Of a stretch of DNA of 43,611 nt, positions 2,692-38,994 are shown piece by piece (position 1 is the first letter of the stretch; every line of letters starts with the position of its first letter). The stretch is taken from NCBI GenBank assembly GCA_016937975.1, contig JAFGVN010000056.1, positions 1 to 43,611 on the forward strand, given 5' to 3'. This stretch comes from Clostridia bacterium. Lineage in GTDB: Bacteria > Bacillota > Clostridia > Peptostreptococcales > Acidaminobacteraceae. A program made the translations under genes and the position numbers. The notes under the pieces were generated by a model. It searched no databases, had not been told where the DNA came from, and saw nothing but the letters and a program-made list of their open reading frames with translations.

Positions 2692-2692
2692 A

Positions 2693-6251: not shown

Positions 6252-6331
6252 AAGACCTCCTATATGGCAAGTGCATATCCATAGGATACCCTTCACAATT
6301 AGGAATTAACATCGATTTGTTGATTCAAGGT

Positions 6332-6353
6332 AAAAAAAAGGAACCTAAGTTCC
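6332..6353 (-). terminator. Terminator of the flavodoxin-tetR operon
   Basis: Minus strand GGAAC-TTAG-GTTCC hairpin (6340-6353) followed by eight T residues, 41 nt past the tetR-family stop codon. Confidence 0.85.
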
Positions 6354-6394
6354 ATTACTAGTTAGTGGACTTTGATTTAATTCTCTTAAGCAAT

Positions 6395-6961
6395 TTAGTT
6401 TACGCCATAGATCTCATTTAAAATTTCATCAAACAACTTTGGTACATGATAGGACATCCCAATTGGACTATAGACTTGATTTAAATACATTGTTCCTTCA
6501 AAGATCAGTGAAATCTTCAGAAGTACATGGTCTAAATCCAAATCCTGTCTTACCTTACCCTTTTTAATATCCTCTAGAATTTTTCCTTTGATTACGCCAT
6601 TAAACTTATGGGTTGCTTCAATTAATTTACTTTTCAATTCTGGATAAGTTCTTGAACAATAAAGTAAAAACTCATACTGCCCTGTTACCTCTTCAGTATT
6701 CTGACTCACCATAATCTCATACAATATTCCAAAAGTATCCTTCAAGCTAATATTATGGTCCTCTAAAGGCGTAATATACGATTCCATCCCCATTACAATT
6801 AAGTCAAAGCTTGCAAACAATAACTCATCCTTACTTCTAAAATAATGATAAATGGCCCCTTTGGTTAAGTTCAAAGATTTTGCTATATCGATAAGAGACG
6901 TTTGCAATACACCATTATTTAAAAACATATACAAAGCCGTCTCAATAATTTGATCTTTCAT
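6395..6961 (-). CDS. TetR/AcrR-family transcriptional regulator
   Basis: A 188-aa repressor-type protein. The N-terminal helix-turn-helix is clear: SLIDIAKSLNLTKGAIYHYFRSKDELLF, about residues 22-49, with the family-typical GAIYHYFxSKDEL recognition helix. The C-terminal ligand domain is divergent, as usual. The ATG follows GGAAGGTGTAGAC. It lies 69 nt downstream of the flavodoxin-like gene with no terminator between, so both probably form one operon, and the palindrome at the operon promoter (7883-7904) is the probable binding site, giving autorepression. The inducer is unknown. Confidence 0.9.
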   Translation of the reverse strand: MKDQIIETALYMFLNNGVLQTSLIDIAKSLNLTKGAIYHYFRSKDELLFASFDLIVMGMESYITPLEDHNISLKDTFGILYEIMVSQNTEEVTGQYEFLLYCSRTYPELKSKLIEATHKFNGVIKGKILEDIKKGKVRQDLDLDHVLLKISLIFEGTMYLNQVYSPIGMSYHVPKLFDEILNEIYGVN

Positions 6962-7030
6962 GTCTACACCTTCCTCTATGTAACAGGATTATAGCATTAT
7001 TCCTCAAATAAGGCAAAATTTTGAAAGGTG

Positions 7031-7864
7031 CTAATAATTGTTATGGGTCCATGCGCCAAGTTTTTGATCTGCATCTTTTCCAAGAAGTAGTTTAAAGACA
7101 AACTTCATGGTCACATTAAAAAACTTTCCTAGCATTTTGTAGAAAATATTAATTTTTGTGTCGTAATAATAAGATTTGTTGAACCATCCTCTATAAACCC
7201 AATGCTCATATCTTGCAGGTTGAGCACTAGGACTCACTTCTCCTTCTGTCTTGTTAAAAATGAAATACATATAAGAAAGAAATGTTGGTTTCATAGGTTT
7301 TTCAGCTTCAATTTCTTTTAGCATGCTAATTGCTGCTTTTTCAAGTCGTTTATTGCCTTTAGCTTTGGATTTTTCATTCATCACATAAAAGGCATGACCA
7401 ATACCAATCTTATCTATGATGTTACAACCCCACCATCTTATAGCACGATCAGCCATATATTTGGGAGCACCTGTCACACCGTCACCACCTGATGTGGATA
7501 TAATGACAGCTGGAACACCTTCAAATTCAACCATGTGGTCCAAATACATAAAACGATCCAATAGATTCTTAAACAACGCCGAAACCATGGCACCATATCC
7601 CGGTGAAGCGAAAACAAGACCATCAGCACTGTGCATTTTTTCCAAGATCTCACGTGCATCATCTCGATTCAAGCACTGATCGGGACCTTTTAACAAACAC
7701 TGATTGCAACTCAAGCAGTATCCGAAATTTTTTTGTATTAAATGAATATATTCAAACTCCACACTTGGATCCATTTTTCTCATTTGCTCTTCAAATACCT
7801 TTACCATACTCATGGTATTGCCTTTAATTCTTGCACTACCATTGACAACAACAATCTTACTCAT
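7031..7864 (-). CDS. Flavodoxin-like NAD(P)H/FMN oxidoreductase
   Basis: A 277-aa cytoplasmic protein with an N-terminal flavodoxin-like fold: VVVNGSARIKGNTMSMV (FMN phosphate loop, residues 4-20), CLSCNQCLLKGPDQC (cysteines about 52-66, as in iron-sulfur flavoproteins and related multimeric flavodoxins), ADGLVFASPGYGAMVSALFKNLLDRF and the STSGGDG loop. Residues about 190-277 are an extension with repeated aromatic and basic residues and a hydrophobic patch (FFNVTMKFVFKLLLG), possibly membrane associated. Start follows GGAGGG. It leads an operon with a TetR regulator, so a role in reducing a toxic or redox-active compound is likely; the true substrate cannot be told. Confidence 0.85.
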   Translation of the reverse strand: MSKIVVVNGSARIKGNTMSMVKVFEEQMRKMDPSVEFEYIHLIQKNFGYCLSCNQCLLKGPDQCLNRDDAREILEKMHSADGLVFASPGYGAMVSALFKNLLDRFMYLDHMVEFEGVPAVIISTSGGDGVTGAPKYMADRAIRWWGCNIIDKIGIGHAFYVMNEKSKAKGNKRLEKAAISMLKEIEAEKPMKPTFLSYMYFIFNKTEGEVSPSAQPARYEHWVYRGWFNKSYYYDTKINIFYKMLGKFFNVTMKFVFKLLLGKDADQKLGAWTHNNY

Positions 7865-7882
7865 ATTATTCCCTCCAATTCT

Positions 7883-7904
7883 ACATACCTACCAGTAGGT
7901 ATGT
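7883..7904. promoter_or_regulatory. Palindromic operator, probably for the TetR protein
   Basis: Perfect 10-bp arms ACATACCTAC and GTAGGTATGT with a 2-bp spacer, immediately downstream of the -10 box of the flavodoxin promoter and upstream of its ribosome binding site. Position over the transcription start fits repression by the TetR protein encoded in the same operon. Confidence 0.8.
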
Positions 7905-7908
7905 TTTA

Positions 7909-7937
7909 ATAATATACCTTTGTTATTACTCTGTCAA
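7909..7937 (-). promoter_or_regulatory. Consensus promoter of the flavodoxin-tetR operon
   Basis: Minus strand TTGACA (7937-7932), 17-nt spacer, TATTAT (7914-7909). It is a near-perfect housekeeping promoter and lies directly next to the palindromic operator. Confidence 0.88.
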
Positions 7938-7947
7938 GCAATATAAA

Positions 7948-7987
7948 AAGAAAAAACTGCTTAAAAGTTCTTTCTTTTAAGCAGTTT
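7948..7987 (-). terminator. Terminator of the LacI-family gene
   Basis: Minus strand 14-bp perfect stem AAACTGCTTAAAAG / CTTTTAAGCAGTTT (arms 7974-7987 and 7954-7967), 6-nt loop, ending in a T-rich tract. It separates the lacI-type gene from the flavodoxin promoter. Confidence 0.92.
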
Positions 7988-8002
7988 AGATGCAATTCTT
8001 TT

Positions 8003-9043
<1,041 letters not shown>

Positions 9044-9049
9044 TCAATA

Positions 9050-9078
9050 ATCATATCAGTAAAAAAGTCTTTTTTCAA
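9050..9078 (-). promoter_or_regulatory. Promoter of the LacI-family gene
   Basis: Minus strand TTGAAA (9078-9073), 17-nt spacer, TATGAT (9055-9050). Expected transcription starts near 9043, favouring the downstream TTG start codon. Confidence 0.7.
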
Positions 9079-9142
9079 ACCATACTTCAGTGGTAGCCTT
9101 CATGAAAAAGAAGAAATTTGCTCTCTTGAGTTGATACGATTT

Positions 9143-13812
<4,670 letters not shown>

Positions 13813-13831
13813 CAAAGGGGTTGTAATGGAA

Positions 13832-15385
13832 CTATTTTCCTAAGGACTCTGCCAATTTTGTTACAGCTTCTCTTGCTGCCTTATAACCACTCTTGTCCCA
13901 TTCTGCTTTCATGGCTTCGTAAAGTGCTTCATCTGATTTGTCAGATGTATCAGCAATGAAGGCTCTCCAGTCCGATGCAAAACTTATGGTCATATCTTTT
14001 ACCGCTTCAAGCTTTCCAACTTCAACTTGTAGTTCATAATCTATAAAAGGATCTTTCCAATCTCTTCTAGATTCAATGACTTCTAGACCAATTTCTTTAT
14101 ATTCCGGTGCAATATCTGGTGTTTTAAATTGAACATAATCTCTCCATACAGCAAAGTCTCTCGAAGCCGTAATTGGGTATTTTTCTTCAATTTGCATTCT
14201 GCTGCCATCTTCTTTCATTGGCAACAAGCTCACAACATTCTCCCCATCCATTTCATAGTCAACACCTTCGATACCGAAGTTCATTAACATAATGCCTTCT
14301 TCACTGTAAAGGAAATCCAAGAGTTCTAAACATTTTTCCATTTTTTCATCACTCATTGCGCCATTGAAGTAAACTTCTGACCAATAATCATATGGATCGA
14401 TGTATCTGACATATTCATTAATGAGTGGTGGTGTTGCAACTGTAATGATCTCTTTAAATGCTTGTGGTGTTTCAATACCACTTAATTCTCTAAATTCCTT
14501 GTGGGTACCGATTAAATGTTGAGGAATTGCTGAACGCTGCAGCACACCAGCCTTACCTGAACCAAAGATCTCTCTTTGTTCTTGTGAACTATGTAGAGCA
14601 AAGTCAGGATGTAAACCACCTGCTTTATACATGGCTCTCATGAAAGATGCATTTTCAAAGGCATTTTCACCTGCAATTGGTAAATACCACTCCCCATCAT
14701 CACCTTTGTTCCAATAGCCAGACATATCCCCAAAACCTGCCCAAGAGGATCCCACTTGACCATTACCAATTAAACCATAGGTATCATCCAAACCATTACC
14801 ATCTGGATCGTTCTTTGTAAAAGCTACCATGGTCTCAATCCATTCGTCTAAGGTTTCTGGCATGTCTAGTCCTAAATTATCCAACCAATCTTGACGAACA
14901 AGTAATGAATTGTATGCCCATTGAATCTCTGGATCGCCAGTGATTCTTGGTGTGAAGTAAATTTTGCCATCTTCCGGTGTATATATCCTTACGGTTTCTC
15001 GATCAATGGCTTTCGCTACATTTGGATAAGCAGATAAGTCGCTTGGTAAAGCCTTAATCACACCATCTTCAATCCATTGATAATATTCTCCTGAACCAGC
15101 AGTATCTGTACCAAACATATCTGGTAACTGATTACTTGAGGCCCAAAGTGTATACTTCTCACCGTAATCATCCCAAGTCACAGGCATTGGAACGATTTTA
15201 ATGTTTAACTTCTCTTCAATTTGTTTCTGAATGTCATCCAGATGATCGCGATCGATCTCAATCACATCCCATAGTGCCAAAGAGATTTCAACTGGACCAT
15301 CTCCTGTACCTGATTTTTCATCAGCGTTACAAGAAACCATCGACAGTGAAAGCACTAACAAAAGTACTAACCATATTTTTTTCAT
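13832..15385 (-). CDS. ABC transporter solute-binding lipoprotein (carbohydrate, LplA-like)
   Basis: A 517-aa lipoprotein with signal MKKIWLVLLLVLSLSMVSC, lipidated at C19, that captures a sugar outside the cell. The body has features of family 1 extracellular binding proteins: WDVIEIDRDHLDDIQKQIEEKLNI, LPDMFGTDTAG, a long central lobe with WLDNLGLDMPETLDEW and the DPDGNGLDDTYGLIG calcium-like loop typical of the 500-aa LplA/YtcQ group. Preceded by GGAGGGG. It follows two permease genes of the same system and precedes the glycosidases. The ligand is probably a complex oligosaccharide, since this group tends to accompany glycosidases and lacks its own ATPase. Confidence 0.93.
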   Translation of the reverse strand: MKKIWLVLLLVLSLSMVSCNADEKSGTGDGPVEISLALWDVIEIDRDHLDDIQKQIEEKLNIKIVPMPVTWDDYGEKYTLWASSNQLPDMFGTDTAGSGEYYQWIEDGVIKALPSDLSAYPNVAKAIDRETVRIYTPEDGKIYFTPRITGDPEIQWAYNSLLVRQDWLDNLGLDMPETLDEWIETMVAFTKNDPDGNGLDDTYGLIGNGQVGSSWAGFGDMSGYWNKGDDGEWYLPIAGENAFENASFMRAMYKAGGLHPDFALHSSQEQREIFGSGKAGVLQRSAIPQHLIGTHKEFRELSGIETPQAFKEIITVATPPLINEYVRYIDPYDYWSEVYFNGAMSDEKMEKCLELLDFLYSEEGIMLMNFGIEGVDYEMDGENVVSLLPMKEDGSRMQIEEKYPITASRDFAVWRDYVQFKTPDIAPEYKEIGLEVIESRRDWKDPFIDYELQVEVGKLEAVKDMTISFASDWRAFIADTSDKSDEALYEAMKAEWDKSGYKAAREAVTKLAESLGK

Positions 15386-15455
15386 AACAAGTTCCCCTCC
15401 TATTATTTTGTAATTATAAAATGATAAAGCTTTCTTTATCCAACTACCTTTTGAA

Positions 15456-16379
15456 TTACTCTTTCAATGATCCTAAAAGAATACCTTTTGAAAAATGCTT
15501 TTGTAACAACGGATAGATAAACAAAATTGGTAAAGTTGCCACCACGACTGAAGCCATTTGTATACCCAATGGATTTAAAAGCACCTTACTGTTTTTCATG
15601 GCTTGTGCCTTTTCACTACCGATATCCATGGAAGATTCAATCACAACATTTCGTATTAAAAGTTGTAGTGGCATTTTATCACTGTCTTGTATAAAGAGTT
15701 TGGCGGTCCACCAGTCGTTCCATTTATCCACAATGAGAAATAGTGCTATGGTTGCCAAGATAGGTTTTGCAATTGGCAGTACAACTCTGATTAAGACTTG
15801 CCATTCTGTAGCCCCATCCATTCTGGCTGCTTCCAACAAAGAATCTGGAATAGTGTTAAAATAGTTCTTCATGAGAATGACATAGAATACATTCACAATA
15901 GAGGGCAAGATGATTGCCCATAAACTGTTGTTGAGACCAAGATTAGTCACCACCAAATACCAAGGAATTAAACCACCTGAAAAGAACATGGGAATGATAA
16001 AAAACAGCATCACCCATTTTCTACCTGGCATGGACTTTCGAGACAAGGCATATCCAGCAAGAATCGTTGTGCCCATACTCATGACAACACCAACAACCGT
16101 TACAAACAAAGAAACATATATACTAGAAAGCAACTTAGGATCAGAGAAAATAATCTTATAGTTTACAAGACTTAAATCTTTCGGAATGAGTTTCATCGCT
16201 GTTTTTGATGAACTTGCATAATCTGAAAGTGAAAGAATAATCATATTGTAAAATGGAAAGATAATGGTAAAGGCAAAGAGTGCCAATAAAGCTAAAATGA
16301 TGAAATCCGCTATTTTATCTCCTACAGAATAACTGTAAAAAGAAGACCCTGATGTGTTCTTTTTCTTCAATAATTTCAT
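15456..16379 (-). CDS. ABC transporter permease, LplC/CarB-like
   Basis: A 307-aa inner-membrane permease with six predicted membrane helices. The EAA loop for ATPase contact is visible as LLEAARMDGATEWQVLIRVVLPIAKPILA (about 185-213). The C-terminal end YPLLQKHFSKGILLGSLKE is typical of the LplC/YtcP subgroup. Start ATG follows AAAGGAGATC. It lies between the other permease and the binding protein, with short gaps (14 and 70 nt). No ATPase gene lies in the cluster, so a shared MsmX/MsmK-type ATPase from elsewhere is presumed. Confidence 0.93.
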   Translation of the reverse strand: MKLLKKKNTSGSSFYSYSVGDKIADFIILALLALFAFTIIFPFYNMIILSLSDYASSSKTAMKLIPKDLSLVNYKIIFSDPKLLSSIYVSLFVTVVGVVMSMGTTILAGYALSRKSMPGRKWVMLFFIIPMFFSGGLIPWYLVVTNLGLNNSLWAIILPSIVNVFYVILMKNYFNTIPDSLLEAARMDGATEWQVLIRVVLPIAKPILATIALFLIVDKWNDWWTAKLFIQDSDKMPLQLLIRNVVIESSMDIGSEKAQAMKNSKVLLNPLGIQMASVVVATLPILFIYPLLQKHFSKGILLGSLKE

Positions 16380-25717: not shown

Positions 25718-27247
25718 ATGGTGAAAAGAATTAGATGTTTATTGGGAATAATTCTAGTTTTAATCTTATTAGTGGGATGCGAAAACAATCAAACAAAATT
25801 TTCTCATGAAGAAATAGAATCCAAGGAAACAGAAATTGAACAGCTTAAAAGTCAGATTATAACCCTTGAAAATGCATTGGTAAACAAAGAAAGTGAGAAC
25901 AATCAAGTTAAAGGTGATTACACCATCTACAAAGAGCATTATCACTATTTGGAATCCTATGCAGATGCAATTTACGTCATTATCAGAAAAGGCGATCCTA
26001 AACTTGATGATATCTGGACAGATACCTTATGGCAATTGGGACCTAATAAATCTAATCAGATTTTCGAAGGTAAAGGTTTGGACTTTAGAGTCAGTCCAGA
26101 TGAACAATATATTGCCGTATCTACAGATCTAGATCTTAGTCTCCTGGATTCAGAAGGAAATCTCTTGAAACAGTTCTCTCAATCAGAATTGGATTCAACT
26201 AAAAATGTTCATCTGAATTTACTGAAATGGAATGACATCGGTGACGTGTTGTGGCTTGAAAGTCAAGAAACCTATATAACTAAGCATTATATAAGAATCG
26301 ATATGAATTCATTGCACGTTGATGTTTATGAGAACCAGTTTGTTATGGGTGACGATTATGATCTTGACCCCAATACAGGTCAAATCGTTTATAGTGATTA
26401 TCCTGTTTTTTTCGATGAGGAAGCTTTGAAAGCATATCAAGAGAGTCAAGTATCTACAAACCTCTATTATTATGACTTAAACTTGCAGAAGAAAGCCTTT
26501 GTTCGTGCAGCGACGACGACTAGGTTTAGCCCAAAATGGATTAGTAATGATCAGTTTACTTATCATGAAGGTTCAGAAATAAAAACTAGTAAAAAAGAAG
26601 ATATTTTCTTCGAACCTGTTCCAGAAGTGAATCTAAGCGATTTACCAGAAGTATGGCAACGTACTTTTGAACACATCAGTCGTTACGAAGGTCAATTGAC
26701 CAATCAAGAAATAAATGTCATTAACACTCTTTTTCAACCCATGTACGACGTTTCAAATTTGGTTATCGTCAATCCTATTTCTTGCTTCTTCACCTCTGAA
26801 TATGACCAAGTAGAAAATCTGGATTTTGTTGAATTTCTAAGGTATTTCCCCTATGGTCAAGTGCCTGACACCTTGCCAGAATTTAATGAATTGAAAACAT
26901 TGGAGCAATGGCCTTTTACAAATATCAATACATTTATGAATATGCCCGTACCGATTCATAAATATAGTTTCAAGGATCTGAATGAAACCCTTATCCTGTA
27001 TGCCGGAATAGCGTTAGATGAGATTAAGGGCATTTATGATGATGAGGTCTTCTATCTTTCAAGTACGCATGCATTTTATAACTATACCAGCGACTTTGCT
27101 CCTGGATATTTTCAGATTACCAGCGGACAAGTCAAAGATTCTGTCATAACACTTTATGGTACAACGAACGAAATGATAAATCGACAATTGACCCTTGTTC
27201 TAAAAGACAATCAATATGTTATACAATCATTTAAATCATATGAGTGA
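25718..27247 (+). CDS. Coiled-coil lipoprotein, function unknown
   Basis: A 509-aa exported lipoprotein, one of two confident plus-strand genes. Signal MVKRIRCLLGIILVLILLVGC gives a lipobox LVGC with C21. A short coiled coil follows (HEEIESKETEIEQLKSQIITLENALVNKESE, about 30-62), then a beta-rich domain (about 80-300) with propeller-like blades such as DTLWQLGPNKSNQIFEGKGLDFRVSPDEQYIAVST and SPKWISNDQFTYHEGSEIKT, then a C-terminal region about 310-509. ATG follows GAGG. No clear promoter was found. It may sense or bind something at the cell surface; the family was not recognised. Confidence 0.85.
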   Translation: MVKRIRCLLGIILVLILLVGCENNQTKFSHEEIESKETEIEQLKSQIITLENALVNKESENNQVKGDYTIYKEHYHYLESYADAIYVIIRKGDPKLDDIWTDTLWQLGPNKSNQIFEGKGLDFRVSPDEQYIAVSTDLDLSLLDSEGNLLKQFSQSELDSTKNVHLNLLKWNDIGDVLWLESQETYITKHYIRIDMNSLHVDVYENQFVMGDDYDLDPNTGQIVYSDYPVFFDEEALKAYQESQVSTNLYYYDLNLQKKAFVRAATTTRFSPKWISNDQFTYHEGSEIKTSKKEDIFFEPVPEVNLSDLPEVWQRTFEHISRYEGQLTNQEINVINTLFQPMYDVSNLVIVNPISCFFTSEYDQVENLDFVEFLRYFPYGQVPDTLPEFNELKTLEQWPFTNINTFMNMPVPIHKYSFKDLNETLILYAGIALDEIKGIYDDEVFYLSSTHAFYNYTSDFAPGYFQITSGQVKDSVITLYGTTNEMINRQLTLVLKDNQYVIQSFKSYE

Positions 27248-27385: not shown

Positions 27386-28915
27386 TTATTCCTCTAAAAT
27401 CACACCGCCCCATTCCACAATAGCGTAACCAAAGCGGTTCATTGGTTCTATTACTGGTTCTGTATTGGGCATACTCTCTTTATCAAAGACAAACCATAAT
27501 CTAAATAAGAACTCTGGTTCAGGTGTAATTTGTACAGGCATTGCCAGATCAACAGTTTCTGTCAGCTGAGGATACACGGCGTAATCTTCATCAGGATCAA
27601 GTTTTACATTCCAGTAATCTAAGAAATCATTACGTTCTTTCTCTGTAAAACCATAAGCGATTAAAATGTTTTCCATCTGTTCATTTCGGTGTTCTGCATC
27701 AATAATCCAACCTTCATCGGTTTGATACAACGCTGGCCAAGTCATAGATTCATAGAATAAATAGTCATAGACCTTACCATCTGATGTCATCATAGAACCA
27801 TCAGGATAGGCTGTTACCTGCCATCTGTCCAAATAGTCAGGAATAACAGTTTCAAGCAATCCAGGCATGTCGAAGACAACTGTAACTTCAGTAACTTCAG
27901 TAGGATAAATATAAATATTCGGTTTATATGCGCCTACATTATCACCTGGTTTACGACCCAAACCTTGATTTCTTCTATCCAACCACTGTTGATGTCTCTG
28001 CTGTGCCAGTGCCAGTTGCTCAGGAGTAGGATGAACCCCTGTATACTGATACCACCTTGTGATCCACCCTTCAAAGGTTTCTGTCCAATAATCATTGGTA
28101 TTGTCTATAATTTCATCTGCAACATTGAGTACTCTGTTATTTTTGCTGTTCATATAAGCAGCAAAGGTATCACTGGTCACAAAATCCTTTGAAACCCCAA
28201 CGCCTAATGCAAACAATTCTCCACCCTGTTTAATAACCGGGATTTGTCCCCAAGGGGTTAATAAGAAACCATTGATGGCTACATTGGAACCTAATAGCGT
28301 ATCTCTTAGGAATCGCATAGAGGAGTGATTATGCTTGTATTCCCCTTTCAACAACGCTTCAGTGTCTGTATACATACCGTAAACAGAAAGTGCAGTACCC
28401 GTTAATTTTATACCTTTCAGATTTCTCAGTTTCCCGAACAACCCTTCTGTTAACTTCCTATTGGCTGCTATTTTATCAGCATTGTTGTTTAAGGATCTCA
28501 TGGTTCTATTCCATGCCTTTGAACCTTCTTTTAATTTAGAAAGAGATTTTTCGATGTTGGCTTTCGCTTCAAGTAATCGAGATAATCCTTTTTCAGCTTT
28601 ATTAATACTGGCTTTGATTTTATCCGCTTCTCCTACTAAACGTTCCAAGTAATTTAACCCTTGGCTTACGACAGCACCACCACCCGTTGAAGTAGGACTT
28701 GTAGCAGAATCCACAGCAAGATCCACTACAGCATCGCCTATGGTAGGTGGTTTCTTCGGCTCTTCAAGTAAGGCCAATGTGGCCTGAACTCTACTGATTT
28801 GAAGAGGTCTATACTCTGAATAATCGAAGTAACCAAAAGCCGAATTTGTCATTAAGGTTAAAATCAAAAGGATTGATAGAATGGGTTTTAGTAATTTAAT
28901 TTTCATCCGATTCAC
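27386..28915 (-). CDS. Secreted protein with helical core and C-terminal KPNIYIYP domain
   Basis: A 509-aa protein, exported by an N-terminal signal (residues about 6-30, LLKPILSILLILTLMTNSAFG) without a lipobox. Next come a helical region with coiled-coil character (about 85-170, ERLVGEADKIKASINKAEKGLSRLLEAKANIEKSLSKL), a glycine-rich hydrophobic middle (about 170-260) and a proline/tryptophan-rich stretch (WITRWYQYTGVHPTPEQLALAQ). The C-terminal domain (about 325-509) starts KPNIYIYP and contains DGKVYDYLFYESM and WNVKLDPDEDY; I have the impression of a recurrent domain in secreted Firmicute proteins (KPxIYxYP...YDYLFWE), function unknown. Start overlaps the TPR gene by 20 nt, so translation is coupled. 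Third gene of the operon. Confidence 0.82.
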   Translation of the reverse strand: MNRMKIKLLKPILSILLILTLMTNSAFGYFDYSEYRPLQISRVQATLALLEEPKKPPTIGDAVVDLAVDSATSPTSTGGGAVVSQGLNYLERLVGEADKIKASINKAEKGLSRLLEAKANIEKSLSKLKEGSKAWNRTMRSLNNNADKIAANRKLTEGLFGKLRNLKGIKLTGTALSVYGMYTDTEALLKGEYKHNHSSMRFLRDTLLGSNVAINGFLLTPWGQIPVIKQGGELFALGVGVSKDFVTSDTFAAYMNSKNNRVLNVADEIIDNTNDYWTETFEGWITRWYQYTGVHPTPEQLALAQQRHQQWLDRRNQGLGRKPGDNVGAYKPNIYIYPTEVTEVTVVFDMPGLLETVIPDYLDRWQVTAYPDGSMMTSDGKVYDYLFYESMTWPALYQTDEGWIIDAEHRNEQMENILIAYGFTEKERNDFLDYWNVKLDPDEDYAVYPQLTETVDLAMPVQITPEPEFLFRLWFVFDKESMPNTEPVIEPMNRFGYAIVEWGGVILEE

Positions 28916-29717
28916 CTCCCAAACTTATGTCATTGAGATACCATGCTATATAACTGGAAGTGGTCTCATCCGGTTCTCTTAGTGCTGCTTCTTCAAAGTA
29001 TTCAAGTGCTTCACTCATCCTTTGTTGTTCATAACAGGTTACACCTAGATAATAGGCAGTTTGGTAATCGGAAGGATCTTGTTCATAAGCTCTTAACAAA
29101 TGATATTCTCCTTTTGTAAATTCTTGCCTATCAATATAGGAAACACCTGCCATCTTTTGCATATGGGTCCAATATGGATGATGATAAGCAGCCTCCATAT
29201 AGAGATTTCTCAGATCATTGGCATGATCTTGTGGATTTAATGTTAAGAACACGGTCTCCAACAAAGTATAATACTCTACAGTAAAACGATCACTGTAGTA
29301 ATATGCGGTGTTTCTTGCTGCATCAAAATTACTTTCACCTAAGTAGATCATCGTTTCAAGAAGTACAGTATTATCACTTGTACCATACACTTCTTTTATT
29401 TGCTCCAATTCACTTCTAGCTTTAACCAGTTCATTATCCATAAGAAGTTCCATAACCGAATCGATTTGATCTGAATAATCATTCAAGCCACCTTCTGCTG
29501 TGGTCATGCCTGATAGTGCGCCCACTGAAAACAAACCCAAAAGTAAGAGAGGTTTTAAGATCTTTGTCATCTTTTCAGGCAATTTTATTGGCGTCCTACT
29601 TGAAGTCAAAATCAAATTAAGCAAGCCTAATAAAATTCCTATCATACCCATAAACTTAGAACAACTAAAGAGGAACATGCCTAATGCAAATATAATCATC
29701 ATCACGATTGAAATCAT
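28896..29717 (-). CDS. Membrane-anchored TPR protein
   Basis: A 273-aa protein. Two or three hydrophobic helices at the N-terminus (MISIVMMIIFALGMFLF, GMIGILLGLLNLILT, ILKPLLLLGLFSVGAL) precede a soluble part, about 85-273, made of TPR-like helical pairs; the clearest are GEYHLLRAYEQDPSDYQTAYYLGVTCYEQQRMSEALEYFEEAALREPDE (about 205-255). TPR repeats usually bind other proteins. It starts 1 nt after the stop of the large zinc-ribbon gene, using an AGGAGGTGA in that gene's last codons, and overlaps the secreted-protein gene. The three products probably work together at the membrane. Confidence 0.85.
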   Translation of the reverse strand: MISIVMMIIFALGMFLFSCSKFMGMIGILLGLLNLILTSSRTPIKLPEKMTKILKPLLLLGLFSVGALSGMTTAEGGLNDYSDQIDSVMELLMDNELVKARSELEQIKEVYGTSDNTVLLETMIYLGESNFDAARNTAYYYSDRFTVEYYTLLETVFLTLNPQDHANDLRNLYMEAAYHHPYWTHMQKMAGVSYIDRQEFTKGEYHLLRAYEQDPSDYQTAYYLGVTCYEQQRMSEALEYFEEAALREPDETTSSYIAWYLNDISLGGESDEN

Positions 29718-29718
29718 A

Positions 29719-32211
29719 TCAGTTCACCTCCTCTTGTAACTTGCTAGCCAGACGATTCATAAGAACATTGTTATGATACTGAACACCATAAATGTCCACA
29801 GCATGGTTACTGTACTGCAATCTCCCATTGACTTCCAATGTACAATTATAAGCTAGTTTGTATTTGCCTAATGCATCATAGGCATTGGCAAGTGCAAACC
29901 ATAAAGTTGGTGCCGTATCATCTAGAGCCAGTGAAGCCTGATAATATTTTACCGCTTCTTCAAATTCTCTCTTGTTGAACTGAATGGTACCAGCAAGGTA
30001 TTGTACTTGTGCTGATTTTTCCATTTCACTGAGTAAAGCTTCTGCATGAATCCATGCTTCATCATATTTTTTATCACTAAAGGTATAATATAATGCTTGT
30101 ACATAATGGTTCAAGAGTGCATTATTTTCAAGTATGCCAAATTGTTCTTCATCCAAATTTGGATAAACTTTGTATTTCATCTGAGGTGTCCACTGGGTTT
30201 GATCCCAGACAGTTAGATATTGTACGAATATATATAAGTCAGCATCTGTTAAAAGATAATCTTCTCCTTCAAGGGTTGGCAACAGATCAAGTAAATCACT
30301 GGCATACTCAAGAGATTTTGTAATCTCGCCAATTTTTAGAGCACTGATCATAGCAATGTTTAACGCTGTTTGGTTAGATGGATTTTCAGTGATTGCTGTT
30401 TCTGCCATCTCCAAGGATTTTTCATAATTCTCTAAGGCTTCATAACAATATGCAGCCAGAAGCATGGTATCCCCTTTTGCACCGAGTGCATGTGCTTCTT
30501 CCAAGTAGAGTGCTGCATTTTGATAATCATGCAGACCCATTAATGCATCTGCAATTTCCATATCGACAGCAATGGTTTGAGTATCCTTGTCTTTTTTTAG
30601 TTGACTGACATACAAATCCCTAAAGCGTATTGCAGCTTGTGCTGTTCTTTCATAGTGATAAGCCCCATCAAATAAGAATTGACGTCCGCCTTGGAAAGCT
30701 AAATACTGACCTAGAAGATTGTCCGGATGGGTTTCAGCATACGTTAGAAGTTGATCAATAATCTGAACACTCATACCACCATTTAAACTGATTTGATTTA
30801 CAATTTTATAAGCATCATAGGCTTCGATAAACCCTAAGTATGGCTCAATACGCTTGATGATGTCATCTTCTTTTCCTTCAATGTCTTTTAGTGTGATACC
30901 ACTGTTAATAAGGGTTTGACCTGCGATACAGGCATTTAAAATCTCTTTTCTGATAACTTCCTGTTTTTCAGATAGAGGTTGAGGATGCTCTTCATTATTT
31001 TCTTGATTGTTGTATGCTGCCAACAAGGCATGATACCACCTTGAAGTGTCTTCACTTTCAAAGATGACGGTCTCAAGATCATAAATGTTATAGGTTTTCA
31101 TTGCCAGCAAATATTTAATTTCATCATCATCTGGATGATTATTGTATAACGTTCTCAAATCATTGATGGCTTCTGGTGTATCTCTTAAGAATGAAATCCA
31201 TGCTTTGCTTTTACTGTATGCAGAATCATACATATACATGGCCATTTCAATATCCCCTGCAGCCATATAAAAGGCGCCTTGATTCATGTCATCTTGTATG
31301 GATGCTTCTATGGCATCAGCAGTGGAATACATTATGGTTGAAAACATATCTAAACCAAATAGACCTAAGACAACCACTAGGGCAATCCATTTCATGAAAT
31401 CAGGTTTTGTTTTAACAACAGGTTGCTGATTCATCTCCAAGTTCTTAAGCATACTTTCTACGACACTTATTAAAATATAGCCCTGCAATGCCACTAAAAT
31501 TACCATAGGCGTTAAGGTGGATATAAATGACAATGGTAAATCTATGAGGACACCGCTAAAAATAATGGTAATGAAATCCGGTAAAATAAATATGCCAAAA
31601 CCTAAGAAGATTATGGTCTTCCAGAATAGCTTAGGATACTTAAACAAACTTTTTCTTGGACTGCCATTAATCAGTTGTAGCGTCATAAAGAGTTGTTTAC
31701 TTATACCTAAGAGAGCAATGACAACCACGACAAAATACGCTATGAAATAAACAAAATATATATCATAGAAATATGCCATAGCAAGATCTGAAATCAATTC
31801 TGTTAATCTTAAGCTGCCGATGTAAAAGGCGTACATGATTAAAATACCTACAGCAGTTGTTTTTACATGATTTGAACTTCTATCAGAAGTTTTTAAAGAC
31901 AGATATTTACTGAATAAGCCATATGCCAATAAAATCCCAAGTAGTTCAATTGCCAGCACAGTTGTACTACTTAAAGCTACTTTTGTTTTTAACATCAGTA
32001 AACTTTCAATCAAAGTCGGTACCAAATAAAGAAACATCAAACCAAACCATAAATAGAATTCTGGATTAAACCCTTGTTTACTATCCTTTTTTTCCTTTAC
32101 CTTGGTTTTCTTCTGTTTTTCATTTTGGTTTTGTTCTTGCAAAGCTCCACAGGACTCACAGAACTTGGAGCCTTCTTTCACTTCAGCACCACAATTTGTA
32201 CAAAAACCCAT
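29719..32211 (-). CDS. Zinc-ribbon, multi-TM, TPR protein
   Basis: An 830-aa membrane protein. Residues 3-22 form a zinc ribbon (CTNCGAEVKEGSKFCESCG; C4, C7, C18, C21) followed by a lysine-rich linker. About seven or eight hydrophobic helices lie between 48 and 300 (WFGLMFLYLVPTLIESLLML, LAIELLGILLAYGLF and others). From about 310 to 820 the chain is TPR-like: for example NQGAFYMAAGDIEMAMYMYDSAYSKSK, AALYLEEAHALGAKGDTMLLAAYCYEALENYEKSLEMAETAITENP and AVKYYQASLALDDTAPTLWFALANAYDALGKYKLA. ATG follows GGGGGGAAGG. First gene of a three-gene operon. The order of domains resembles large conserved membrane proteins of Firmicutes without known function. Confidence 0.85.
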   Translation of the reverse strand: MGFCTNCGAEVKEGSKFCESCGALQEQNQNEKQKKTKVKEKKDSKQGFNPEFYLWFGLMFLYLVPTLIESLLMLKTKVALSSTTVLAIELLGILLAYGLFSKYLSLKTSDRSSNHVKTTAVGILIMYAFYIGSLRLTELISDLAMAYFYDIYFVYFIAYFVVVVIALLGISKQLFMTLQLINGSPRKSLFKYPKLFWKTIIFLGFGIFILPDFITIIFSGVLIDLPLSFISTLTPMVILVALQGYILISVVESMLKNLEMNQQPVVKTKPDFMKWIALVVVLGLFGLDMFSTIMYSTADAIEASIQDDMNQGAFYMAAGDIEMAMYMYDSAYSKSKAWISFLRDTPEAINDLRTLYNNHPDDDEIKYLLAMKTYNIYDLETVIFESEDTSRWYHALLAAYNNQENNEEHPQPLSEKQEVIRKEILNACIAGQTLINSGITLKDIEGKEDDIIKRIEPYLGFIEAYDAYKIVNQISLNGGMSVQIIDQLLTYAETHPDNLLGQYLAFQGGRQFLFDGAYHYERTAQAAIRFRDLYVSQLKKDKDTQTIAVDMEIADALMGLHDYQNAALYLEEAHALGAKGDTMLLAAYCYEALENYEKSLEMAETAITENPSNQTALNIAMISALKIGEITKSLEYASDLLDLLPTLEGEDYLLTDADLYIFVQYLTVWDQTQWTPQMKYKVYPNLDEEQFGILENNALLNHYVQALYYTFSDKKYDEAWIHAEALLSEMEKSAQVQYLAGTIQFNKREFEEAVKYYQASLALDDTAPTLWFALANAYDALGKYKLAYNCTLEVNGRLQYSNHAVDIYGVQYHNNVLMNRLASKLQEEVN

Positions 32212-33539: not shown

Positions 33540-36467
33540 TTAAGCATCTTTATTGGTCGTCGATGTAATTTGATCTTTTCCCCTTCTCTTGGAAACATAC
33601 ATCATTTCATCTGCTCGTTTTAAATAGCATTGAACGGTACAGCCTTGGGTTGGAATGGCAGAATAAATACCAATACTCAACGAAGCTTTTACCTTCACAA
33701 GTTCATTGCCATTTTGTACAGGTAGTTTTAATGCCTTTTCTTGGATTCGTGCTGCAATGGCTCTTGCTCCTGCTTCATCGGTATCATATAGGACTACAGC
33801 AAACTCATCTCCACCAAAGCGTGCACAAAAATCTGTGCTTCTTATGAGTAGACCTTGAATGGTACTTGCAAGTACCTTCAAGAAGCGATCCCCGAACAAA
33901 TGACCTTCCAAATCATTAATGGCTTTAAAATCATCTACGTCAATCATGATTAAACTGATATGATCCTGACCTCTGCGTGCTAAATTTATATAATTGTCAA
34001 ACATGCTGTCAAAGTAACGTCTGTTGTAAATTCCAGTCAATGCATCTGTTGTAGACAAGGCTTCCAATTCACCAACTGCTTGATTTAACATGTTGTTAAT
34101 TTGTCCGAGTTCCTTATTTTTCTTGGAGAGCAAATGACCTTCTCTAATTTTAACAATGCCATAAACAGATGCAGCAACAATACCAATATACAGCCCATAG
34201 GCTGCCTTGGTTTTAAACCATGGTAGCTTTATGGTAAAAAACAAACTCGCCGTTTCACTGAATATACCGTCTAGGTTCTTAACTTTAACAGAGAATTCAT
34301 ATGAACCAGGTTCAAGGTTGGAATAAGAAGTATAATTTCTATTGCCTGTACTGATCCAATCCTTGTCAAAGGGTTTTAATTGATGATAATACTGCAATGT
34401 AGACTGCTTCATATAATCCAGTGCTTCATAATCAAAACTGATATCATTTTCATTGTAATTGAAAACATAGTTCCGGTGATTTAAAATACGCACATTGGGC
34501 TCAACAGAATGTTGTTTCATCGTTACATTTGTAATGTAAACTGGAGGCATATCCTGAGGTTCCAATTCATGACTCGATGGAATCACATCGACACCATGTT
34601 CACCTGCAAAATACAAACTGCCATCCCCATCCATCATACCAACACCGGTATATTCCAATCCTCCTAATCCATTTTCAACGGTAAGTGTGACAATCCCTCC
34701 TGTTTCAATATCGACAACAGAAAGACCGTTAAGTGTCGCGACCCAGATTTCATTGTTTTTTGATTCCAATAAAGAAACAACCTCGTTGCCAGCCAAACCT
34801 TCCTTCTCTGTAATGGATTCAAAACACTCTGTATGTTCGTCAAATCGTGCCACGCCACCACCTAAAGTACCAATCCAAATATTACCATCATGATCTTCCA
34901 TTAGGGTTCTAATATTGTTGCTGCCTAAGCTGGTGCGATCACCATCTTTTCTTACAAAATTACGTAAAGATAAAGTTTCTTCATTATACTGATACAAGCC
35001 GTTGTTGGTACCTATCCAAACTCTTCTCTTTTGATCACATAAAATATCGTAGATTTGATTGTTTCCAAGACCATCCAACTTACCATCATTTTTTATGTGT
35101 TTGATCAAAGTAAAATCCTCATCGAAGAGATAGGCACCTGTTAAATATGAACCAACCCACAAATGGTGGTTCTTATCGATATATAGCTTATAAACTGTGT
35201 TATTTTCAGGCAATAGATCCAAATGTTTAAAAGCATCCTCAATAGGATCATAATAACCAACACCACTGCCTGATGCAATGAGCAACTTGTTGCCATAATC
35301 CATAAAATCAAGTACTTGATCATGAATCAAACCATGACGGCCCTTGTTCTGAGTTGAATATTTGATCATCGCCCCAGTATTGGGATCAAGGCGATTTATA
35401 CCACTATTGTAGACTGCAATCCACAAGTTGTCTTTCAGGTCTCTATAAACCCGATTCACACGACCTTTACTTAAAGAATCTGGCTTTAATGGATCATGGG
35501 CGTATTTCAAATATGCTCTGGTTTGAGGGTGTACCTTATAGGTACCACCACCATTTGTACCGACCCAAAGGGTGCCAAGATTGTCCTCAAACAAGGTATA
35601 TACAATAGGATTGCCAATATCATCAGGCTTCCCTTCACCTTTAAACCTAATGATTTCATCATCCAGTATGGCAAACAAACCACCACCCCATGTGCCGACC
35701 CATAAAGTCGCATCACTGGTTTTTAACATGGTATAAACTCTATTGTCATCTAGTACTATGTGATTAAGGATCTTAAAGTCCATGTCCAAGGTTACAACGC
35801 CGCCATCCCACATGCCGATTGTAATGAACCCTTGATCCAGCTCCAAAACTTTCATAACGCTTTTAGAGGGTAAAGCCACGTCTGCTTTTATGAACGCATT
35901 TTTAAACGGGTCGAAATACAATAATCCTTCATAGGTACCAACAAGAAGACGATTTTTAGAATCAAGACAGATGCTTCTTACTACGTTGCCTTCAATTTCA
36001 AAGGTCTCTAACTTCTCTGTGTTTTTATCTAGTTTATTCATGCCTTCCATGGTGCCAAACCACATGTTGCCATATTGATCCTGGGATATGGCTACAATCA
36101 CGCTATTGGATAAACCATTTTTTTCAACGGTATAATTTTTAAAGGTTTTGGTATCAATTTCAAATTTTGAAATACCTTGATAAGTCCCTAACCATAATAC
36201 ATTGATTTTCTCATCATAATATAAGCTTTGAATCAAGTTGTTTGATAAATTATTTATATCAAAAGGATCTGTTCTATACACAACAGTGCCTTTTCCATTA
36301 AATTGATAGAGACCGCCTTGTGAAGCCAACCAAAGATAGCCCTCACGGTCTTGTACAATATTCGTAATAGACGAATTATCTATACCTTCATCTTTACCAA
36401 CTTTTTCAAACTTTAAATTTGTGATGCGTTCTGAAAAGGTCATCAGCGTTCCACTTTTTTTATTCAT
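33540..36467 (-). CDS. Propeller (Reg_prop/Y_Y_Y) sensor diguanylate cyclase
   Basis: A 975-aa c-di-GMP synthase. Start set at ATG 36467 (MNKKSGTLMTFSERI) after GGGAG. Residues about 15-630 hold about twelve two-component propeller repeats (typified by DREGYLWLASQGGLYQF, DQYGNMWFGTMEGMNKL, DHDGNIWIGTLGGGVARF). A Y_Y_Y domain (about 640-750) leads into one membrane helix (AAYGLYIGIVAASVYGIVKI, about 755-775), a short coiled coil and a GGDEF domain (about 800-970) with GGDEF intact and an RSTD I-site five residues before it, so it should be active and product-inhibited. Oddly, no N-terminal signal peptide or first membrane helix is seen, so how the sensor would reach the outside is unclear. Followed by the DsrE-like gene. 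Confidence 0.9.
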   Translation of the reverse strand: MNKKSGTLMTFSERITNLKFEKVGKDEGIDNSSITNIVQDREGYLWLASQGGLYQFNGKGTVVYRTDPFDINNLSNNLIQSLYYDEKINVLWLGTYQGISKFEIDTKTFKNYTVEKNGLSNSVIVAISQDQYGNMWFGTMEGMNKLDKNTEKLETFEIEGNVVRSICLDSKNRLLVGTYEGLLYFDPFKNAFIKADVALPSKSVMKVLELDQGFITIGMWDGGVVTLDMDFKILNHIVLDDNRVYTMLKTSDATLWVGTWGGGLFAILDDEIIRFKGEGKPDDIGNPIVYTLFEDNLGTLWVGTNGGGTYKVHPQTRAYLKYAHDPLKPDSLSKGRVNRVYRDLKDNLWIAVYNSGINRLDPNTGAMIKYSTQNKGRHGLIHDQVLDFMDYGNKLLIASGSGVGYYDPIEDAFKHLDLLPENNTVYKLYIDKNHHLWVGSYLTGAYLFDEDFTLIKHIKNDGKLDGLGNNQIYDILCDQKRRVWIGTNNGLYQYNEETLSLRNFVRKDGDRTSLGSNNIRTLMEDHDGNIWIGTLGGGVARFDEHTECFESITEKEGLAGNEVVSLLESKNNEIWVATLNGLSVVDIETGGIVTLTVENGLGGLEYTGVGMMDGDGSLYFAGEHGVDVIPSSHELEPQDMPPVYITNVTMKQHSVEPNVRILNHRNYVFNYNENDISFDYEALDYMKQSTLQYYHQLKPFDKDWISTGNRNYTSYSNLEPGSYEFSVKVKNLDGIFSETASLFFTIKLPWFKTKAAYGLYIGIVAASVYGIVKIREGHLLSKKNKELGQINNMLNQAVGELEALSTTDALTGIYNRRYFDSMFDNYINLARRGQDHISLIMIDVDDFKAINDLEGHLFGDRFLKVLASTIQGLLIRSTDFCARFGGDEFAVVLYDTDEAGARAIAARIQEKALKLPVQNGNELVKVKASLSIGIYSAIPTQGCTVQCYLKRADEMMYVSKRRGKDQITSTTNKDA

Positions 36468-36592
36468 TTTAATTCTCCCAAGAAAGCCATGTATTCTTTG
36501 ATGTTTCAAGAATTCTTCTATATCTCCATTATACAATACAATGAACTTAGCTTATAGGAAACGCAGTAATTTCTTTAAACAAATTATGTTTC

Positions 36593-37152: not shown

Positions 37153-38994
37153 ATGAAAAACACACTTTCTGTTATGCACATAGACGATTTTCAAAAATAT
37201 GCCAAAAGAAAAACAATTTTATGGCTTATCGGTATTTATGCTTCAAACGTTATATTGGCATTGTTCATTTCAATTTTTTATTTCCTTTTTGAATCCAAGA
37301 CCGATGCTTTTAACAACTTTATGATTTTTTTTAGAACAATTACCTTAGCTTTAACTGGATTTGCATTTTTTGTGACTTATCGCAAGGCTTTAGATAAAGC
37401 AAAATATCTTATTTTTTTAATCTTGTTTATTAATCTTATGATGTATATCTATATGCCTAATAAGGATTTCGTTATTGCTGTATCAACATTTACTGTTACA
37501 GTCATTATTATTGAAGACTTTTTTTCTTCGTTTTTCACAAACACTAAATTTACAATTATTTTTGGGTGTTTGGGAGGCATTTTATTGAATGGTTATGCAT
37601 TCTATTTAGTTCAGTTTGTATCTAGAACCACTAATATAAATTATGAAATTTTGTTCGTTATGAATTATCTGATTGTCTTCATATCCATTTTTAATGTCTC
37701 TTCTTCAGCTGGTAAAAATCGTTTTACAAAATATTTAAGTCAACTTATTTACATGGATATGAAAACAGGATTGCATAATGAAAGAGAATTTGAACATCAA
37801 TTAAAAATTGCTATAAATAACAAAGAGCCCTTTTATATTTTATCCCTTCATTTTTCCAATTTAAGTTTTTTAAACAAACGATTTACTTACAGAATTGTAC
37901 AACATGAATATCTGAACTGTATTCAAGACATAAAGAAAATTATGAGTACTACTGCAGAATCATATAAATTAGAAGGACCTTTGATTGCTTTTATTATCAA
38001 GGAAAATCTACATGATATTGAAGATATTCAAAATAAAATACATCAGATTAATTCCAGTTGTAATAAAAATCTAAAGGATAACAAACAAAACAAACACATG
38101 GCTTTAAACTGGCTAGGTACAAGGTTTCCAGATGACGGACACTCTTCAGAAAAATTGATTAGCAATCTGTATCATTTAAAAGATATTGAGTCATATCCTA
38201 TAGGAGGTATTCAATGGTATGACCAGGATGCTTATTACAAAATGAAACGACAAATCAATTTGGAAAAAGATTTAATTTCAGCCATTGAAAATGAAGGATT
38301 GGAAATCGCTTTGCAGCCACAATTTGATTTAAATAAGAATACATTACATGGTGTCGAGGTATTGGCACGCTGGACTCATAAAGAACACGGCATTGTAAGT
38401 CCTGTAGAATTTATTCCAATAGTTGAACAATTAAATTTGGCTGAGAAATTTACCAATTGTATCCTAGACTTATCCAAAAAAGCTTTATTACATATAGAAG
38501 CAAATCATATCCAAATAGAACAAATCGCAGTAAATATTATTGCTTCCAATATATCTGATGGTTCAATTATCACCATGATAAAGAACTGGCCGAATCTTTT
38601 GGAATTAGAAATTACAGAGAGTACTTTAATGGAATTAAACGAACGAGCAAAAGCAACATTGTCTCTACTCAAAGAAAAAGGTTTTTCAATTGCAATTGAT
38701 GATTTTGGTACAGGCTTTTCAAATTTGGAATACCTACACGCTCTAGATGTTGGCTATTTAAAAGTGGACAAGAAATTCATTGATTCGATGATGACCAGTG
38801 AAAAGGCACTAAAACTTGTAGAAGCCTTGATGTCAATGGCACATACTTTAAATATTAAGGTTATTGCTGAAGGGGTTGAAACCAAGATGCAATATGATAT
38901 TTTAAAAAGCCTTAATTGTGATATTATTCAAGGGTATTATTATGCAAAACCTATGAGTGTTGATGCTTTTATAGAAAGATTTAAACCCATTTAA
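37153..38994 (+). CDS. Membrane EAL phosphodiesterase with degenerate GGDEF
   Basis: A 613-aa c-di-GMP-degrading enzyme. The N-terminus has about six membrane helices (residues 20-190). A GGDEF-like module (about 205-350) has lost its signature: the equivalent position reads KLEGPLIAF, so it should not make c-di-GMP. The EAL domain (about 370-613) keeps the catalytic set: GVEVLARW (EVL in place of EAL), NIIASN, LELEITES, IAIDDFGTGFSNLEYL (the two Asp), LKVDKKFI, VIAEGVET and IQGYYYAKP. Good ribosome binding site AAAGGAGG. Only this gene and the lipoprotein run on the plus strand. The degenerate GGDEF may act as a GTP sensor, as in other EAL proteins. Confidence 0.92.
   Translation: MKNTLSVMHIDDFQKYAKRKTILWLIGIYASNVILALFISIFYFLFESKTDAFNNFMIFFRTITLALTGFAFFVTYRKALDKAKYLIFLILFINLMMYIYMPNKDFVIAVSTFTVTVIIIEDFFSSFFTNTKFTIIFGCLGGILLNGYAFYLVQFVSRTTNINYEILFVMNYLIVFISIFNVSSSAGKNRFTKYLSQLIYMDMKTGLHNEREFEHQLKIAINNKEPFYILSLHFSNLSFLNKRFTYRIVQHEYLNCIQDIKKIMSTTAESYKLEGPLIAFIIKENLHDIEDIQNKIHQINSSCNKNLKDNKQNKHMALNWLGTRFPDDGHSSEKLISNLYHLKDIESYPIGGIQWYDQDAYYKMKRQINLEKDLISAIENEGLEIALQPQFDLNKNTLHGVEVLARWTHKEHGIVSPVEFIPIVEQLNLAEKFTNCILDLSKKALLHIEANHIQIEQIAVNIIASNISDGSIITMIKNWPNLLELEITESTLMELNERAKATLSLLKEKGFSIAIDDFGTGFSNLEYLHALDVGYLKVDKKFIDSMMTSEKALKLVEALMSMAHTLNIKVIAEGVETKMQYDILKSLNCDIIQGYYYAKPMSVDAFIERFKPI

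What the first reader, a model, noticed from the sequence alone, without database searches (positions are those of the whole stretch)
27386..32211. Three-gene zinc-ribbon / TPR / secreted-protein operon of unknown function
An 830-aa protein (zinc ribbon, 7-8 helices, about 500 aa of TPR), a 273-aa TM-TPR protein and a secreted 509-aa protein are fused into one translationally coupled unit (1-nt gap and 20-nt overlap). The design, a cytosolic or membrane TPR scaffold with an exported partner, looks like a dedicated envelope machine and I cannot match it to any described system.
Basis: partly seen in the sequence, partly recalled or inferred. Interest (0 to 1): 0.6.

Follow-up and report, generated by a model that had tools for sequence, protein, structure and literature searches.

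The report
Conserved membrane TPR trio, unnamed domain
Three adjacent genes in a clostridial-type bacterium encode two membrane proteins with large outward-facing helical scaffolds and one exported protein; the same set in the same order recurs in many distant relatives, the searches made found no described system for it, and the exported partner ends in a widespread domain that the family libraries searched do not name.

Summary
P1 (29719-32211), P2 (28896-29717) and P3 (27386-28906/28915), all minus strand, encode: a zinc ribbon, 7 TM helices and a TPR superhelix; 3 TM helices and TPRs; a signal peptide, helices and a conserved ~180-aa C-terminal domain. The trio is co-conserved: of the 80 loci kept from a genome scan with P3, 48 carry P1-P2-P3 in that order, all with Bacillota titles. 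In reverse, the seven genomes where P1 was found in two samples all have P2 and P3 beside it, three of them new to the study. Pairwise distances correlate at r 0.83-0.93. Charge bias puts both TPR parts outside. No Pfam or NCBIfam model was found for the P3 C-domain. That domain is pan-bacterial, lies at the very C-terminus in 114 of 114 distinct proteins and has twelve near-invariant K, Y, W, E and R positions. The zinc ribbon is optional (20 of 43 P1s). Best reading: a membrane TPR platform that holds an exported binding or enzymatic protein at the cell surface. Function is inferred, not shown. 'Conserved envelope machine' is supported; the zinc ribbon is not a defining part.

The parts
29719..32211 (-). 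P1: 830-aa membrane protein: N-terminal zinc ribbon (aa 3-23), 7 TM helices (about 51-294), extracytoplasmic TPR superhelix (about 297-797)
   Evidence: Zn_Ribbon_1 E 7.8e-8; TPR_2 E 1.2e-12; AF2 pLDDT 88.2; positive-inside in 22 of 22 P1s with seven predicted segments
28896..29717 (-). P2: 273-aa membrane protein: 3 TM helices (within 1-71) and TPRs
   Evidence: (TPR_2 E 4.8e-7)
27386..28915 (-). P3: exported protein; likely start ATG at 28906 (506 aa); signal peptide about aa 1-25, helical middle part, conserved C-terminal domain
27386..27925 (-). P3 C-terminal domain (aa 328-506 of the ATG form, 'KPNIYIYP ... VEWGG'); no Pfam or NCBIfam model found; pLDDT block means 93-98 but for the last residue
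32212..32420 (-). 209-nt stretch upstream of P1 without a listed ORF of 100 aa or more, with ggggggaagg before the ATG; place where an operon promoter would be expected, but none was found
   Evidence: the consensus scan lists no minus-strand promoter-like site inside this stretch

Best explanation
A three-gene envelope unit of Bacillota. P1 (7 TM) and P2 (3 TM) sit in the cytoplasmic membrane with their TPR superhelices outside. P3 is exported by its signal peptide, docks on the TPR platform through its helical middle region, and presents its conserved C-terminal domain at the cell surface or wall, where that domain is the working part (ligand binding, or an enzyme: near-invariant K328, Y332, Y334, Y358, W362, E386, E424, W432, R469, R491, E498, W499). 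In about half of the P1s a cytosolic zinc ribbon gives a contact point for cytosolic partners, perhaps the small coiled-coil/zinc-ribbon protein sometimes encoded next door. Shown: genes, order, co-conservation, predicted topology, conserved residues. Inferred: physical complex, docking mode, what the C-domain binds or cuts.
For: Fixed P1-P2-P3 order in 48 of the 80 loci kept from a scan with P3, in the window, and in MT835506.1. P1's own profile hits 3 of 391 class genomes and 5 of 398 phylum genomes, the window's genome in both; all seven have P2 and P3 beside P1. Four of the seven had rows in that profile; G587, G642 and G770 are new. Distance correlation P1-P2 0.93, P1-P3 0.89, P2-P3 0.83 over 42 loci, 0 of 2000 permutations as high. 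More K+R on the predicted inside in 22 of 22 P1s with seven segments and 34 of 46 P2s with three, 7 ties, 5 against. An N-terminal hydrophobic segment in 49 of 50 P3s. C-domain: twelve K/Y/W/E/R positions at 96% or more over 120 copies. A coiled-coil protein of the zinc-ribbon kind within 132 nt of the trio in 7 of 53 loci, three of them near-identical and L117's copy without the ribbon, and one elsewhere in this genome.
Against: No interaction was measured and no complex modelled. Correlated distances would also follow from shared descent alone. The C-domain occurs without the trio in most genomes that have it: 36 of 391 class genomes have it, 3 of 391 have P1. Of the 80 loci, 30 have the C-domain without a trio found beside it (upstream is cut or very short in L119, L121, L132 and for the first copy in L140), and 2 more, L063 and L105, are cut or nearly so upstream. 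The trio is absent from the nearest relatives: 0 of 2 same-genus and 0 of 38 same-family genomes have a full P1 or P3. The searches scored two candidates per genome, so P1 without P3 could have been missed.
Confidence: 0.45

Rival explanations
1. Transmembrane sensor: P3's C-domain or the TPRs sense a wall or outside signal, and P1 passes it through its seven TM helices to the cytosolic zinc ribbon.
For: Zinc ribbon inside and bulk outside, the layout predicted for TcaA (PMC10328498, passage seen); a 7TM histidine kinase and a LuxR-type regulator lie near the trio in L158, and a like-sized pair in L160 (by length and sequence start only).
Against: The zinc ribbon motif is missing in 23 of 43 P1s (one of these is a split frame); two-component genes were noted near the trio in only a few loci; no output domain is known for P1.
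Confidence: 0.2
2. Maturation or anchoring machine for proteins that end in the C-domain: P1-P2 load, fold or attach such proteins, and P3 is the dedicated client.
For: The domain is at the very C-terminus in 114 of 114 distinct proteins, with 31 to 720 residues before it in the 109 with a complete start; LRR and PKD proteins are among them, and by sequence look SLH and BlaR types. A strict C-terminal place is typical of sorting or maturation domains (general knowledge).
Against: Most genomes with the domain have no P1 found, and short lipoprotein-like proteins of little else than the domain exist in Bacteroidota.
Confidence: 0.15
3. P3 is an antagonistic secreted protein (toxin-like) and P1-P2 its assembly or release platform.
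For: The middle part is helical and variable, and 22 of 50 P3s have a further hydrophobic stretch before the C-domain (not the window's); one of 47 members matched a T6SS effector family weakly, E 1.3e-4.
Against: No toxin, effector or defence family reaches its cut-off in the window proteins; no gene family recurs beside the trio in more than 8 of 50 loci; the conserved part is the C-domain, found in other exported proteins too.
Confidence: 0.1
4. Co-inherited operon of separate envelope proteins without a physical complex.
Against: Order is kept across divergent loci (mean identities 21, 23, 30%) while no other neighbour family is in more than 8 of 50 loci.
Confidence: 0.1

Closest known systems
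LbcA-CtpA of Pseudomonas aeruginosa (PMC8764530, abstract and section list seen)
   Same: Envelope TPR spiral that works with an exported partner; the LbcA-CtpA entry 8sxf_C is at rank 37 of the Foldseek hits of P1 (E 4.3e-5, TMq 0.25).
   Different: LbcA is an outer-membrane lipoprotein and CtpA a protease; P1 is a 7TM protein, a second membrane TPR protein exists, and no protease family was found in window P3. The Foldseek similarity is that of TPRs in general.
TcaA of Staphylococcus aureus (PMC10328498, passages seen)
   Same: Predicted intracellular zinc finger, membrane passage, bulk outside; sub-threshold NCBIfam hit of P1 aa 1-45 (17.2 bits of 550).
   Different: [quoted passage not shown] the passages seen name no TPRs and no P2- or P3-like partner.
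MamA and PrsT (PEP-CTERM) TPR families
   Same: TPR repeats; sub-threshold NCBIfam hits of P1 and P2.
   Different: P1 scores far under the cut-offs (35.2 of 200; 32.1 of 312.2).
Other proteins that end in the same C-domain: BspA-type LRR protein on a Ruminococcus albus plasmid, PKD lipoprotein-like proteins of Bacteroidota, LRR proteins of Clostridium
   Same: Same domain at the very C-terminus, with N-terminal export signals by look.
   Different: No P1-P2 found next to those; other N-terminal parts. The plasmid's neighbourhood was not looked at.

Membership tests
LbcA-CtpA type scaffold/protease pair | Exported partner is a carboxyl-terminal processing (S41) protease | tested here: not met
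   No peptidase S41 or PDZ model in window P3 at E 1 or better; among 47 relatives none in the 25 of 30 families shown
LbcA-CtpA type scaffold/protease pair | Scaffold is a lipoprotein made of TPRs | tested here: not met
   P1 has TPRs but seven TM helices and starts with a zinc ribbon
TcaA family (NF053815) | Score over the NCBIfam cut-off | tested here: not met
   17.2 bits against 550
TcaA family (NF053815) | N-terminal zinc ribbon on the cytosolic side | tested here: met
   Zn_Ribbon_1 E 7.8e-8; inside by charge bias in relatives, a prediction
MamA / PEP-CTERM PrsT TPR families | Score over the NCBIfam cut-off | tested here: not met
   P1 35.2 of 200 and 32.1 of 312.2 bits; P2 24 of 200 and 27.7 of 312.2
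A named Pfam or NCBIfam family for the P3 C-domain | A model over its cut-off that covers the domain | tested here: not met
   None in window P3. Over 47 members that share the domain no family matches more than 3 (Pfam) or 2 (NCBIfam). None over its cut-off on the domain in five further proteins; one sub-cut-off DUF7878 hit, 19.2 of 25 bits, in L053
Known fold for the P3 C-domain | Clear structural match in the PDB | tested here: inconclusive
   Whole-protein model: no Foldseek hit at E 0.001 or better; VIA rows mostly cover the helical part, 136-231; the domain was not folded and searched alone
Known anti-phage defence systems | PADLOC model match | tested here: not met
   0 families for P1, P2, P3 at E 0.01

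The most novel reading that the evidence does not exclude
The trio is a new class of envelope machine in Bacillota: a two-protein membrane TPR platform, with optional cytosolic zinc-ribbon input, dedicated to an exported protein whose strictly C-terminal, pan-bacterial and unnamed domain is a new enzyme or cell-surface binding module with a near-invariant Glu/Arg/Trp/Tyr site.
Probability: 0.3. Interest if true: 0.75.

Novelty: new variant of a known kind. Interest (0 to 1): 0.52.

Why it matters
An operon kept together in very divergent anaerobic-type Bacillota, several from rumen or faeces by their record titles, points to a real envelope function that annotation misses, because each part reads as 'zinc ribbon', 'TPR' or nothing. 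The P3 C-domain alone would merit a family model: by record titles it reaches Bacillota, Bacteroidota, Myxococcales, Ignavibacteriales, Cloacimonadota and Candidatus Gottesmanbacteria, always at the C-terminus in what was fetched, with residues that look like a site.

Tried and rejected
Scans of viral contigs with single P3 and P1 found no relative, nor with the alignments A7 and A4. The only 'phage' record with a match to P3 at E 1e-5, MT835506.1, also carries genes that read as a sugar ABC transporter and carboxylase subunits, so a phage origin was rejected. P1 has no match in the plasmid collection; P3's C-domain has one, in R. albus. A megablast of E. coli genomes with the P2-P3 DNA gave none. 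PHROGs gave none for five domain proteins, PADLOC none for P1, P2, P3. Solved-structure searches: P3 profile, best hit FcpA at E 0.0034, in profile positions 4-200, before the C-domain; P1 profile, mostly TPR proteins (best 60 of 273 shown); an L011 domain protein, nothing below E 0.07.

VIA-align rows for P3 (Orai channel Z 8.8, 84 residues) cover only the helical part and, by the tool's own note, may mean no more than a common arrangement; not used. One viral-library match (Terrestrivirus protein A0A3G4ZNZ8, E 1.1e-11, 214 columns, 19% identity, TM 0.33/0.39) suggests that the C-domain reaches giant viruses; the matched part is not printed, so it stays a lead.

A fourth conserved component was looked for among up to six genes on each side: no family is shared by more than 8 of 50 loci, and the commonest is an ABC-type ATPase in scattered positions. 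A DUF4870-like gene follows the trio in L127, L159 and L160 and lies 4.3 kb away in L097, 4 of 53 loci; its Pfam score is under the cut-off. A ~170-aa lipoprotein-like gene is upstream in 5 of 53.

Paper searches, listings only: (3 papers; 2; 1) listed none that by its title describes such a trio or domain, one search listed none; those listed were not opened. Searches served the comparison with LbcA-CtpA and TcaA.

Full report
What is there. P1 has an N-terminal zinc ribbon (Zn_Ribbon_1, E 7.8e-8) and TPRs (TPR_2, E 1.2e-12); P2 has TPRs (TPR_2, E 4.8e-7); P3 has no Pfam family over its cut-off. NCBIfam gives only hits under the cut-offs for all three. P1 ends and P2 starts one base apart. 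P3's listed GTG start overlaps P2 by 20 nt, but an ATG at 28906, six bases after a ggaggtg stretch, fits better and gives an 11-nt overlap. A 209-nt stretch separates P1 from the next listed gene upstream; the consensus scan shows no minus-strand promoter-like site in it.

Structure. The AlphaFold2 model of P1 (37 rows, mean pLDDT 88.2) shows the ribbon region, seven long helices at 51-294 and a regular helical array at 297-797. The model of mature P3 (47 rows, mean 75.8) is poor for about the first 140 residues, fair to good at 141-240, and very good (block means 93-98) for the C-terminal domain from 301 on, the last residue excepted. P1 matches TPR proteins of many kinds in the PDB. P3 has no Foldseek match at E 0.001 or better, but the domain was not searched alone, so a new fold cannot be claimed (note). 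The positive-inside rule puts N-termini inside and TPR parts outside: 22 of 22 P1s for which the simple predictor found seven segments, and 34 of 46 P2s with three segments, 7 ties, 5 against, out of 53 loci; the others were not counted.

Co-conservation. P3 led first to a fecal scaffold deposited as 'Bacteriophage sp.' that holds 815-, 267- and 472-aa genes in the same order among genes that read as bacterial metabolism. Two genomes of the window's class followed (G099; G227). One scan of the genome collection with the P3 alignment gave 143 pattern matches, 120 of them relatives, of which the best 80 were kept. With profiles of P1, P2 and P3, 48 of these 80 have all three genes adjacent in the order P1-P2-P3; with the window and MT835506.1 that makes 50 distinct loci (its 51 rows include L061, the same place as L127). 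Of the other 32 loci, L063 and L105 are cut or nearly so upstream of P3; 30 have the C-domain without a trio found, among them Bacteroidota and Clostridium records (whose printout was cut); of these, upstream is missing or short in L119, L121, L132 and for the first copy in L140. The reverse test started from P1: its profile hits 3 of 391 class genomes and 5 of 398 phylum genomes, the window's genome in both; all seven have P2 and P3 next to P1. Only two candidates per genome were scored in those searches, so P1 without P3 could have been missed. The trio is patchy: 0 of 2 same-genus and 0 of 38 same-family genomes have a full P1 or P3, and two of them have only the C-domain, in lipoprotein-like proteins of 367 and 232 aa.

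Co-evolution. Over 42 of 53 loci (11 partial, frame-split or near-duplicate loci left out) pairwise distances correlate at 0.93 (P1-P2), 0.89 (P1-P3) and 0.83 (P2-P3), with no permutation of 2000 as high; mean identities are 21, 23 and 30%. This shows joint inheritance, not contact.

What varies. The zinc-ribbon motif is in 20 of 43 P1s not cut at the 5' end (one of the 43 is a split frame). A small coiled-coil protein of the zinc-ribbon kind is encoded within 132 nt of the trio in L084, L087, L088 (near-identical), L095, L097, L106 and L117, that is 7 of 53 loci; L117's copy has no ribbon, P1 has its own ribbon in L097, and P1 is cut in L095, so the idea that it stands in for a missing P1 ribbon fits four rows, three of them alike. 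The window's genome has such a protein elsewhere, in a group of zinc-ribbon genes (L162). A cytosolic zinc-ribbon partner is thus a guess with modest support. 22 of 50 P3s have a further hydrophobic stretch before the C-domain.

The C-terminal domain. In the loci fetched by then, 121 ORF sequences carry it. Of 114 distinct C-termini, 49 of them trio P3s, all 114 end within 9 residues of the domain; in the 109 with a complete start the domain begins at residue 32 to 721. Over 120 aligned copies (118 distinct), W362, W432, W499, Y332, P356 and G370 are 100%, and K328, Y334, Y358, E386, E424, R469, R491 and E498 are 96-99%. So many conserved charged and aromatic residues in an exported domain suggest a binding or catalytic site; whether they lie together was not tested. 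No Pfam or NCBIfam model was found for it. It is in 36 of 391 class genomes at E 1e-10, so most genomes with the domain have no P1 found.

Comparison with the known. The nearest working analogue is a TPR scaffold with an exported partner, LbcA-CtpA (PMC8764530, abstract and section list seen), but no protease family was found in P3 and P1 is no lipoprotein. The nearest layout with an inside zinc finger is TcaA (PMC10328498, passages seen). Both membership tests fail on a defining feature. Paper searches of the open library listed no description of the trio or the motif (listings only); most subscription papers are not held there.

Verdict. A real and conserved unit for which I found no description, made of known building blocks plus one unnamed domain. 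The unit is well supported; its function is not. I rate 0.45 for the platform-plus-exported-effector reading and keep sensor, maturation machine, toxin and no-complex readings open.

Noticed in passing
MT835506.1 (L021): Deposited as 'Bacteriophage sp.' but reads as a bacterial chromosome piece (sugar ABC transporter, carboxylase subunits, the trio); probably mislabelled.
   Followed up: partly
L097 (Diplocloster modestus), 2328-15742: The trio sits among at least six genes with zinc-ribbon-like cysteine motifs, one of them joined to a DUF4870-like part; a DUF4870-like gene without ribbon follows the trio in L127, L159 and L160.
   Followed up: partly
L162 (own genome, C128:94000-107000): A group of zinc-ribbon genes with a coiled-coil/zinc-ribbon protein of the family that flanks some trios.
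   Followed up: partly
L054 1381-3546; L055 775-3492: The P3 C-domain also ends a BlaR/M56-like membrane protein and an SLH-like protein (by sequence look, no family search).
   Followed up: no
BFVD A0A3G4ZNZ8: A Terrestrivirus protein resembles the P3 model (Foldseek E 1.1e-11), a hint that the domain exists beyond bacteria.
   Followed up: no
window 33540-36536 and 37153-38994: A regulator-propeller/Y_Y_Y/GGDEF protein and a GGDEF/EAL protein stand upstream of the trio: a possible c-di-GMP pair.
   Followed up: no
window 25718-27247, +: A 509-aa lipoprotein-like protein without a family over its cut-off, convergent to P3.
   Followed up: no
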